Positions 54,802 through 64,000 of a stretch of 64,000 nt of DNA are shown here, piece after piece. The position numbers and the translations under genes were made by a program. How positions within the stretch are numbered: the first letter of the stretch is position 1; each line of letters starts with the position of its first letter. The notes beneath the pieces were generated by a model. That model ran no database searches, was not told the origin of the DNA, and saw only the letters and a program-made list of their open reading frames with translations. This stretch comes from an uncultured Bacteroidales bacterium. GTDB taxonomy: Bacteria > Bacteroidota > Bacteroidia > Bacteroidales > WCHB1-69. Where the stretch lies: NCBI GenBank assembly GCA_905235135.1, contig CAJOKR010000005.1:1-64000 (forward strand). Reading direction: 5' to 3'.

Positions 54802-56868
54802 CTACACATTTCTGGTCTTCAAATACGACACCCTGAACTCCTTGCATTTCCGTTTGTCTTGACGCATGGCTTCCACCGAAAATGGACTGTATTTCTCAAA
54901 AATATCCAGTCCGCGCCCAAGCGTGATAGTCCAACCTGTATCGGTCTTGATGCAACGGTCATGGAAATCCCGGAACTTGTATTCGAACTCAATGCCGTAA
55001 CCCACCAAGTCATCCTTGAAGTCATCCAACTTGTCTATCAAATCCGGAATTTTGTCCTCATCCTCGTTGGTGACGAGCGTTATCTTGAGATCATCCACAG
55101 GACGGGTGTCCACAAGCATCGTCACAAACTCCATGAAGTTTTTGACCTGCCATGGGGCACGAATATAAGGGTCTTCGATTGTTATTTCATTTGCATCGGA
55201 CAGATACGGGGCAAACAGTTTCTCGTAAGTAACACCCGTTTGACCCATTCGGAACGACAAGGATTGCTCTCGAAGTACGGGAACTTTCAATCGCTTTCCG
55301 CGCTCATCTGTCTCTCCACAAGACTCTTCATGTATCTCAGGGTCTGCAACCTCATTTTCAACACTCGAAACATCATGAGGTTCAAAAGTCGGCAAAACGA
55401 GACCGTTACTCACTCTCTCCAAAGTCTCCACGTACACTTCCTCTCCATTCTTCAGGTTGATGTATTTGAATTGGGCCGGTTCCGCCAAGAAGGTCTCGTC
55501 AATGATATACAATTGATCTTTCACCCGTTTACGACATTCCGCCGCAAAGTCAATAAGTTCGTAAGCCTCCGCGTCGGTCATCTTTCCGTCGGGATAGAGC
55601 AGCTTCATCATACCAGAGAATGTCTTTCGAATAGCCAAATGGTCACGTTCCGACAAGGAACCGTCAAATTTGGCGTACTCTTTCAGAATATGGGTGCGGT
55701 CGTCATTACGAAGGGCATGGAGCACAGCGGCCACGTAGTCTGTAATCAACCCATATCCTGTCGAAAAGCTGTTTTTCTTCAACATTTTAATCTCCCAACC
55801 CGGATTATAGAGGTGAACCCTGTCGAGGAACGCTCCTTTGACAAATGAGGTTGGAATGGATTCAAACAGATGGCTGTTTTTCAGCATATAAGAGACCGTA
55901 TGCTTCGTGTTGCCCACAAAGCACATAGACGCACTGGCCTCATGAGTTGCCTTTCCTCTGTTAAAAGACTTGTTGGCCAAATAGTTCTGCATGATATCAA
56001 TAAGGGTAGGCTCAACGGCGCGACCTTTTTGCTGTTCAAACTCGTCCCACGCCACTACATCCCAATACCCCACCAATCCGAGAATCTCTTTGTTCCCTGA
56101 CATTTTCACAAACAACCGTGCGGATGTCACGTCACCGCCACTCACCAGCACCCCGTAGGGCGACAGCTCCTGGAACACATGGCTTTTACCCGTCCCTTTC
56201 GGACCGAGTTCCACAAAATTGAAGTTGTTCTCCACATGAGGCAACAGACGAGCTAAAGTGATGAACTTTTCGCGACGGTTCATCGGTTCGGGATTCAGCC
56301 CTACAGTATGCATCATGAAATCCAGCCACTCTTCAGTAGTGAAATTCTTTCGTTGCTCAATGTAGTTTTCCAAATCAATGTTGGATATTTGGATAGGTTT
56401 CAGCGTTTGAATCTCCCAACGTACCCTGATGTCCTCGCCTTGTAGATAACCGATAGTGACGATGCACCACACGCCATTGCCGGAAAGCAGTTTGGGGTTT
56501 GCCTTCACGTATTGTGTACCAATGGGTACGTGTGTCAATCCAAGATTGGCAAATTCGGCCTCGTATTGGTCCAGTTTCTCATTCAGCGTCACGGAAACCT
56601 TGTCGATGACACGATAGTGCCCGGCCTCGCGAATTCTTCCCTTCACTGCTTCCGCTTCCGCCCTATGGACGTAATTGTTCTGGATCACCTGTTTAACCTT
56701 TTCAAGTCCCTCCTCAATTACCTCTTCGTCATCGCTGGCGCAATACTGTCCCAGCAAATATTCCAACACGTAGGTGGGCACCGGAAGTCCACCCTTGACC
56801 AGGAAAGCCAAATCTTTTCTCACCACCTTCCCGATGAAAGCATCCATTATTTTTTGTTGAAGTGTCAT
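54802..56868 (-). CDS. brxL: BREX system Lon-like protein BrxL
   Basis: FNFVELGPKGTGKSHVFQELSPYGVLVSGGDVT; WDEFEQQKGRAVEPTLIDIMQNYL; NTKHTVSYMLKNSHLFESIP; downstream of pglZ. Confidence 0.93.
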   Translation of the reverse strand: MTLQQKIMDAFIGKVVRKDLAFLVKGGLPVPTYVLEYLLGQYCASDDEEVIEEGLEKVKQVIQNNYVHRAEAEAVKGRIREAGHYRVIDKVSVTLNEKLDQYEAEFANLGLTHVPIGTQYVKANPKLLSGNGVWCIVTIGYLQGEDIRVRWEIQTLKPIQISNIDLENYIEQRKNFTTEEWLDFMMHTVGLNPEPMNRREKFITLARLLPHVENNFNFVELGPKGTGKSHVFQELSPYGVLVSGGDVTSARLFVKMSGNKEILGLVGYWDVVAWDEFEQQKGRAVEPTLIDIMQNYLANKSFNRGKATHEASASMCFVGNTKHTVSYMLKNSHLFESIPTSFVKGAFLDRVHLYNPGWEIKMLKKNSFSTGYGLITDYVAAVLHALRNDDRTHILKEYAKFDGSLSERDHLAIRKTFSGMMKLLYPDGKMTDAEAYELIDFAAECRKRVKDQLYIIDETFLAEPAQFKYINLKNGEEVYVETLERVSNGLVLPTFEPHDVSSVENEVADPEIHEESCGETDERGKRLKVPVLREQSLSFRMGQTGVTYEKLFAPYLSDANEITIEDPYIRAPWQVKNFMEFVTMLVDTRPVDDLKITLVTNEDEDKIPDLIDKLDDFKDDLVGYGIEFEYKFRDFHDRCIKTDTGWTITLGRGLDIFEKYSPFSVEAMRQDKRKCKEFRVSYLKTRNV

Positions 56869-56873
56869 AATCG

Positions 56874-63106: not shown

Positions 63107-63109
63107 GAA

Positions 63110-64000
63110 CTATAAACCGAGCGTTTTGATAAAACTGATGTTGTGGGCATATTCGTTCCGAAGCTTGTCCGCTATTTTCTCCGCTTTGACAGCATCTTTC
63201 TCTTTCCAATACAGATACATTTTCCGCAACTCTTCCATCTGAACATTGCTGTGTGGCGTGTCCATGACATCCGTTAATCCACTATTATAATCAATGCCAA
63301 AGACATCTTCGATAAGTTGATTGTAATATTGTCCATCCTTACTATACAACTTGTATAACTTATGGTCTTCGAAATCACCAACGGTTTGGTCGAAGTTGGT
63401 GATCACCAAAGGAGAATGGGTTGACACGACGAACTGTAAACGGGGAAAAGCCCGTTGCAATCTGGGAAGAATCTCCATGGCTATGGTAGGATGGAGATGC
63501 AACTCGATTTCGTCAATCAACACAACCCCTTCTGGGTTGCAATGGCCGTTCAGCAGATAACTCCGGTTTGCCAGATCAAACACCATTGAAAACATACGAT
63601 TATAGCCTTGCGGCAAACTGTCGAATGGCTTTTTGGTTCCATTGTCATACTCAATCATCATAACCAGTTTTCCACCCCGGAATTCGGAATAGAGGTCTGT
63701 AATGGCCAACGATTCATTGACACCCGATTCCAAAGGCAAGGTGAACTGTTTCAAAACCTGAGTAACTGCGTTGACATAGCGCCCTTTCGCCTCATCGGGT
63801 TTCGTGCTGTTGTTGTTCCATTGCATGGCAAAATAGGTCTTCCAAATCTCCACACAACTTTGATCCAAATCCCATTGGTAATAGCCTGTGTTTGGAGGAA
63901 GCGGGTTGCCTGATTCAAGTTTACTTTTTATAGCATTACTTATGCGTGTGTTTTTATGCGGGAAGCCATCCGAGAAATAGGCCAAAACAGGTTTTTCGTT
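63110..64000 (-). CDS. AAA-family ATPase, PtuA/OLD-like (5' end beyond window)
   Basis: PEGVVLIDEIELHLHPTIAMEILPRLQRAFPRLQFVVSTHSPLVI; frame open to the window edge as NEKPVLAYFSDGF. Confidence 0.85.
   Translation of the reverse strand, partial: NEKPVLAYFSDGFPHKNTRISNAIKSKLESGNPLPPNTGYYQWDLDQSCVEIWKTYFAMQWNNNSTKPDEAKGRYVNAVTQVLKQFTLPLESGVNESLAITDLYSEFRGGKLVMMIEYDNGTKKPFDSLPQGYNRMFSMVFDLANRSYLLNGHCNPEGVVLIDEIELHLHPTIAMEILPRLQRAFPRLQFVVSTHSPLVITNFDQTVGDFEDHKLYKLYSKDGQYYNQLIEDVFGIDYNSGLTDVMDTPHSNVQMEELRKMYLYWKEKDAVKAEKIADKLRNEYAHNISFIKTLGL

What the first reader, a model, noticed from the sequence alone, without database searches (positions are those of the whole stretch)
54802..64000. Septu-like PtuAB, a small ORF and a SIR2 effector placed directly upstream of BREX pglZ-brxL
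Seen directly: six minus-strand genes with gaps of 3 nt (PtuA-PtuB), 4-nt overlap (PtuB-sORF), 7 nt (sORF-SIR2), 11 nt (SIR2-PglZ) and 5 nt (PglZ-BrxL), so one transcript is likely. Established: PglZ and BrxL are BREX components; PtuA ATPase plus HNH PtuB make Septu or accompany some retrons; SIR2 proteins are NAD-depleting abortive effectors in several systems. Inference: this is a BREX locus carrying a second, possibly cooperating, defense module, or a composite system. The start of the locus (brxA/B/C, pglX or an RT) lies beyond the window.
Basis: partly seen in the sequence, partly recalled or inferred. Interest (0 to 1): 0.85.

Follow-up and report, generated by a model that had tools for sequence, protein, structure and literature searches.

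The report
BREX operon with swappable backup-defence slot
A Bacteroidales bacterium carries a complete BREX anti-phage operon with a Septu-like nuclease pair and a DSR2-like NAD-destroying protein between two core genes; relatives carry other backup weapons at the same spot, and the DSR2-like protein recurs beside other DNA-methylating defences.

Summary
Beyond the window edge the contig completes a type 1 BREX operon: WYL regulator, brxA, brxB, brxC, pglX, then the cargo, pglZ and brxL. There is no reverse transcriptase. Two details change. The 'small ORF' is not a gene: it is the last 38 residues of PtuB, put out of frame by a 4-nt deletion. And pglX is split in two at an inter-domain linker by an inserted yhcG nuclease gene.

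The pglX-pglZ gap is a cargo slot: related loci hold nothing, PtuAB alone, a PARIS-like pair plus SIR2, SIR2 alone, or Schlafen-like, Fic or GmrSD genes. The SIR2 protein is a full-length DSR2 homologue. In 14 of 20 loci its family lies inside BREX or directly downstream of type I or type IIG restriction genes.

Best reading: layered defence. BREX acts early; PtuAB and the DSR2-like NADase abort infections that get past it. Triggers are inferred. Backup effectors in BREX are published; I found no report of SIR2 among them, nor of split pglX. New variant of a known kind.

The parts
54802..56868 (-). brxL, 688 aa, with a C-terminal phospholipase-D-like (HKD) domain
   Evidence: PF13337, PF20442, PF16565
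56874..59411 (-). pglZ, 845 aa
   Evidence: PF08665; TIGR02687 277.3 bits, cut-off 270.35
59423..62254 (-). DSR2-like SIR2 protein, 943 aa
   Evidence: SIR2_2; Foldseek to DSR2 E=1.7e-28; profile to DSR2 E=2.9e-53, full length
62262..62378 (-). out-of-frame C-terminal tail of ptuB (the 'sORF'), 38 aa
62375..63106 (-). ptuB, HNH nuclease, 243 aa, truncated by a 4-nt deletion
   Evidence: PADLOC PtuB; relatives are 274-282 aa in one piece
63110..64000 (-). ptuA, ABC ATPase, 3' part inside the window; the full gene (440 aa) runs to contig C5 position 64432. The rest of the operon lies beyond the window on the same contig (window and contig coordinates are the same): pglX C-part 64491-65240, yhcG 65218-66381, pglX N-part 66451-69312, brxC 69388-73011, brxB 73024-73635, brxA 73632-74258, WYL regulator 74341-75351, all minus strand
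   Evidence: ptuA. Rest: NF033452 in two parts, NF033441; PF06250/PF17761, PF08747, PF13280; PF08849

Best explanation
A complete type 1 BREX operon of a Bacteroidales bacterium with backup defence genes in the pglX-pglZ cargo slot. BREX methylates host DNA and blocks unmodified phage DNA early (established for the family). The cargo is two independent fallbacks. One is PtuAB, an ABC ATPase with an HNH nuclease (Septu-type); its PtuB has lost the conserved C-terminal tail here and may be weakened. The other is a DSR2-like NADase that, by homology to Bacillus DSR2, should stay silent until a late phage product binds its helical C-terminal part, then hydrolyse NAD+ and stop the infection. The cargo would protect the population when a phage escapes or inhibits BREX. 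Gene content, order and slot turnover are shown; enzyme activities, triggers and the division of labour are inferred.
For: All six BREX type 1 core genes plus a WYL gene. Same slot, different cargo in related loci, including PtuAB alone (L118), a PARIS-like pair plus SIR2 (L033), SIR2 alone (L018) and nothing (L104). GC3 of ptuA/ptuB/sir2 is 0.48/0.41/0.36 against 0.56-0.76 for brxA, brxB, brxC, pglX-C, pglZ and brxL. SIR2 is a full-length DSR2 homologue with H145 aligned to catalytic H171. DSR2 is known to be activated by phage tail-tube protein and to deplete NAD+ (PMC11087589, PMC11263360). Backup effectors inside BREX are a published pattern (PMC12839542).
Against: No functional data. PtuB is truncated. 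SIR2 has Thr27 where 90% or more of its family has Ala. The BREX-embedded PARIS of Salmonella could not be activated in tests, so embedding does not prove function. DSR2 and this protein are distant (about 18% identity), so the trigger may differ.
Confidence: 0.68

Rival explanations
1. The SIR2 protein is a dedicated guard of DNA-modifying immune systems: it monitors the BREX or restriction methyltransferase complex and fires when a phage anti-restriction protein (such as an Ocr-like DNA mimic) disables it, as PrrC does for type I enzymes (own knowledge) and PARIS for Ocr.
For: 14 of 20 loci of the close family are in BREX or directly after hsdR, hsdS or a type IIG gene; contexts switch repeatedly on the tree, BREX rows as one clade rejected, p-AU 1.6e-6; P. 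ruminicola carries a PARIS-like pair plus SIR2 in the same slot.
Against: Its full-length homologue DSR2 senses a phage structural protein and needs no restriction partner (PMC11087589). Adjacency alone does not show coupling. L035 has no such neighbour.
Confidence: 0.2
2. Chance defence-island stacking: the genes are adjacent only because defence genes accumulate together.
For: Slot content is variable, and PtuAB and SIR2 occur apart from each other.
Against: The genes sit inside the BREX operon on the same strand with gaps of -4 to 58 nt and spare the core genes; PtuAB and SIR2 each recur in exactly this slot in other genomes.
Confidence: 0.1
3. The locus is decaying: split pglX and frameshifted ptuB mark a dying defence operon.
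For: The PtuB tail is out of frame; pglX is interrupted.
Against: Both pglX parts are complete and cut cleanly at a linker; an independent locus (L017) is split at the same point with other genes between; free-standing PglX C-parts of 239-252 aa are frequent, 51 of the best 120 hits. All other core genes are intact.
Confidence: 0.12

Closest known systems
Type 1 BREX with PARIS inside (Salmonella D23580/StySA, PMC11341690)
   Same: Type 1 BREX core genes with a two-gene ABC-ATPase plus nuclease system co-localised within the BREX island
   Different: PtuA/PtuB (HNH) instead of AriA/AriB, an added DSR2-like protein, and pglX split by yhcG
OLD-ABC plus HNH dyads and other backup effectors in BREX (PMC12839542)
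   Same: ABC ATPase with HNH nuclease embedded in a BREX locus; Schlafen, GmrSD and PARIS as alternatives; BrxL with an HKD domain
   Different: Neither SIR2 nor sirtuin is mentioned in its main text; the effectors listed are nucleases, not an NADase
DSR2 (defence-associated sirtuin 2, Bacillus subtilis)
   Same: N-terminal SIR2 domain plus long helical C-terminal part, full-length profile and fold match, catalytic-motif His and Asn conserved
   Different: About 18% identity; found inside BREX and restriction operons rather than as a single-gene system; trigger unknown
Septu (PtuAB) and retron Ec78/I-A PtuAB
   Same: PtuA ATPase followed by PtuB HNH nuclease
   Different: No reverse transcriptase or retron; inside BREX; PtuB has few relatives (7 hits) and is truncated here

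Membership tests
BREX type 1 | brxA, brxB, brxC, pglX, pglZ, brxL in one locus in this order | tested here: met
   pglX present in two parts covering the whole model
BREX type 1 | Site-specific adenine methylation and block of phage replication | not testable with these tools
   needs methylome and phage assays
Septu | Adjacent PtuA ABC ATPase and PtuB HNH nuclease | tested here: met
   PtuB matches PADLOC PtuB at E=1.1e-15 but lies well below the NCBIfam PtuB cut-off (27 of 150 bits), which was built for retron Ec78 PtuB
Septu | Complete PtuB | tested here: not met
   C-terminal tail out of frame in this assembly
Retron with PtuAB effectors | Reverse transcriptase in the operon | tested here: not met
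   every gene from brxL to the WYL gene identified; none is an RT
DSR2 | SIR2 domain plus long helical C-terminal part over the full length | tested here: met
DSR2 | Catalytic Asn and His of the SIR2 NADase | tested here: met
   N107 and H145 invariant in the family; H145 aligns with H171 of DSR2
DSR2 | Activation by phage tail-tube protein and NAD+ depletion | not testable with these tools
   needs biochemistry
Thoeris ThsA | Short SIR2-SLOG protein (about 480 aa) with a TIR partner gene (ThsB) | tested here: not met
   943 aa, helical C-terminal part, no TIR gene in the operon
PARIS | AriA with AriB (DUF4435/TOPRIM) | tested here: not met
   no DUF4435 gene in this operon; a PARIS-like pair is present in L033 and L018 instead

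The most novel reading that the evidence does not exclude
A DSR2-like NADase family specialised as an operon-embedded guard of DNA-modification immunity (BREX, type I and type IIG alike), triggered when those systems are inhibited; [quoted passage not shown]
Probability: 0.22. Interest if true: 0.8.

Novelty: new variant of a known kind. Interest (0 to 1): 0.55.

Why it matters
If DSR2-like NADases are regular partners of methylation-based defence, BREX and restriction operons are two-layer systems: a sequence-specific block first, cell shutdown second. Whether phage anti-restriction proteins or late phage proteins trigger the second layer then becomes directly testable. The naturally split pglX marks a boundary just after the spacer helices, where the published structure leaves a conserved C-terminal region without known function, and offers a way to study that region as a separate protein.

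Tried and rejected
sORF as gene, antitoxin or leader: rejected, it is the PtuB tail. Retron: no reverse transcriptase. ThsA/Thoeris: best PADLOC match of the SIR2 domain, but the full-length profile and fold say DSR2. A fixed PtuAB+SIR2 module: rejected, they occur apart. PglZ in the order (3 of 395 genomes) and PtuB in the order (2 of 395) gave few loci; the PglX C-part worked better. Plasmid and phage collections hold only distant SIR2-domain matches. A strict full Bacteroidetes promoter pattern found none in the operon; only the -7 box did.

Full report
What is there. The window is C5:1-64000 of a 3.26 Mb draft genome. A genome of the same family (G089) shares its contig with a record labelled 'uncultured Bacteroidales bacterium' (L028), so the host is a Bacteroidales bacterium (inference). 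The contig runs on to 128,718. Reading on past 64000 gives, on the minus strand: WYL regulator 74341-75351, brxA 73632-74258, brxB 73024-73635, brxC 69388-73011, pglX N-part 66451-69312, yhcG 65218-66381, pglX C-part 64491-65240, ptuA 63110-64432, ptuB 62375-63106, sir2 59423-62254, pglZ 56874-59411, brxL 54802-56868. This is a complete type 1 BREX operon; none of its genes is a reverse transcriptase.

The small ORF. A protein search with PtuB found only seven relatives, the five closest 274-282 aa long. The closest, P0241, ends ...GTAFDANPNMSAREFGVFVDLLKNEFWNVLLKYDFFGADLIVANQLF in one frame. The window reads ...GTAMLILT and stops, and the ORF MSAREFGVFV... follows in another frame, with 14 nt where P0241 needs 18. 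The ORF is therefore the PtuB tail after a net 4-nt deletion. The tail is conserved: the one-piece PtuB of L118 ends in a matching stretch. PtuB is truncated in this assembly. Whether a tail peptide made from the overlapping ATG still helps is unknown.

Split pglX. The PglX model NF033452 is covered at positions 1-960 by one ORF and 971-1209 by another, with a YhcG-type PDDEXK nuclease gene between. The N-part ends ...EEITILQQGEISIRDEE and the C-part, after about a dozen new residues, starts ...IVWHEDVLMKQLISYA, exactly at the linker of one-piece PglX proteins. In a genome of the same genus (G040, L117) both are one gene: the blocks matching 66750-66473 and 65198-64492 are only 25 nt apart there, against 1274 nt here, so yhcG is an insertion. 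Marseilla massiliensis (L017) is split at the same point with other genes between (DUF3990, DUF6078 and small ORFs), and L110 likewise. Free-standing PglX C-parts of 239-252 aa make up 51 of the best 120 hits to the C-part; some could still be truncated gene calls. The C-part starts at Salmonella PglX residue 967, just after the spacer helices (850-960), where a region of unknown function begins. In E. coli BrxX, residues of this part such as K1048 and R1145 contact Ocr and DNA.

The slot. I compared 19 Bacteroidota BREX loci with pglX and pglZ both in view. Six have nothing between (L099, L104, L106, L108, L111, L119). Thirteen have cargo: PtuAB+SIR2 (window); PtuAB (L118); a PARIS-like AAA_15+DUF4435 pair then SIR2 (L033, Prevotella ruminicola); SIR2 (L018, Bacteroides mediterraneensis, with a PARIS-like pair before pglX); SIR2+Schlafen-like (L017); Schlafen-like genes (L098, L109, L113, an apparent remnant in L110); GmrSD+Schlafen-like (L112); Fic (L107); unknown genes (L100, L101). 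L017, L018 and L033 were found through SIR2, so they are biased for it. In the set sampled through PglX or PglZ, SIR2 is in 2 of 17 (window; L105, the same genome as L018) and PtuAB in 2 of 17 (window, L118). In P. ruminicola the PARIS-like pair occupies the place that PtuAB has here, upstream of SIR2. Base composition fits separate arrival: GC3 is 0.48, 0.41, 0.36 and 0.48 for ptuA, ptuB, sir2 and yhcG, against 0.56-0.76 for the core genes except pglX-N at 0.51. Between window and G040, brxA-brxC are 92.5% and the first part of pglX-N 86% identical in DNA, while 67771-66751, in the target-recognition region, has no DNA match.

The SIR2 protein. It belongs to a family of about 920-970 aa. A model from 26 sequences has mean pLDDT 87; its best PDB matches are DSR2 chains over the full length (E=1.7e-28, TM 0.63). 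The family profile matches DSR2 at E=2.9e-53 from position 3 to 941, with H145 aligned to H171. Of 20 loci with an upstream neighbour in view, 14 are in BREX (window, L017, L018, L033), directly after hsdR (L019, L022, L028) or an hsdS fragment (L031), or directly after a type IIG enzyme (L021, L023, L026, L027, L030, L032). L020 follows an LlaJI-like endonuclease; L024, L025, L029, L035 and L044 are other or unclear; L016 cannot be judged. More distant relatives also sit beside MmeI-like, type IIG or HsdS genes (L049, L086, L072, L060; those neighbours were picked for size, so this is not an unbiased count). On the tree the contexts need 9 changes among four classes, and BREX as a single clade is rejected. 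L022 shows the parallel best: hsdM-yhcG-hsdS-hsdR-sir2, like pglX-N-yhcG-pglX-C-...-sir2 here.

How it most likely works. BREX core: as known for type 1 (established knowledge). PtuAB and SIR2: two exchangeable fallbacks. DSR2 is activated by phage tail-tube protein and depletes NAD+ (PMC11087589, PMC11263360), that is, late in infection. A DSR2-like protein next to an early-acting block is a natural backstop even without physical contact (inference). PARIS reacts to Ocr in E. coli, but the Salmonella BREX-embedded PARIS did not react in tests (PMC11341690), so a direct guard role needs testing. Promoter-like -7 boxes 36 nt before yhcG and ptuA (40 nt before ptuA of L118) suggest the cargo can be expressed apart from brxA; this is a consensus match only.

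What is known. The pglX-pglZ interval as a cargo site is published: about 7,000 of 9,000 genomes carry genes there, with BrxU in 16% and PARIS in 2.2% of the recognised cases (PMC11341690). OLD-ABC+HNH dyads, PARIS, Schlafen and GmrSD effectors and BrxL-HKD in BREX are also published (PMC12839542). I found nothing in the held library on SIR2/DSR2 proteins as BREX or restriction-operon partners, or on split pglX. That library lacks most subscription papers, so absence is not proven.

Verdict. A real, complete BREX operon with swappable backup genes. New here, as far as I could check: the recurrent DSR2-like companion and the split pglX.

Noticed in passing
contig C5 64491-69312 (just beyond the window): pglX is split into two genes at an inter-domain linker by an inserted yhcG gene; the same split point occurs in L017 and L110 with other genes between.
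   Followed up: yes
L110 4733-8701: The pglX N-part holds a long in-frame insert that looks, by eye, like a REP-associated (HUH) transposase flanked by short repeats, without breaking the reading frame.
   Followed up: no
L113 10153-15000: Another BREX locus with a PtuA-like ATPase, an HNH gene and a RecQ-like helicase with a phosphoribosyltransferase domain upstream of pglX.
   Followed up: partly
L119 3562-5265: ABC ATPase (AAA_21) plus a 174-aa protein without Pfam match between brxC and pglX: a second cargo position, also used by a PARIS-like pair in L018.
   Followed up: partly
window 59423-62254, residue 27 of SIR2: Thr where the family has a nearly invariant Ala in the GAGxS motif; the 91% identical relative P0001 has Ala.
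   Followed up: no
contig C5 64468 and 66408: Bacteroidetes-type -7 boxes (TATCTTTG, TATTTTTG) 36 nt before ptuA and yhcG, hinting at separate promoters for the cargo.
   Followed up: partly
L117 8661-10616: In the same-genus genome G040 the slot begins with a gene of at least 651 aa with only a weak Sacsin-domain match, cut by the contig end; possibly another unknown effector.
   Followed up: no
L123 5075-7067: Two 298- and 301-aa genes with near-identical N-terminal sequences in tandem upstream of the G040 BREX locus.
   Followed up: no
contig C5 66751-67771: No DNA match to G040 in the target-recognition part of pglX although the flanks are 86-87% identical: a specificity-domain swap.
   Followed up: partly
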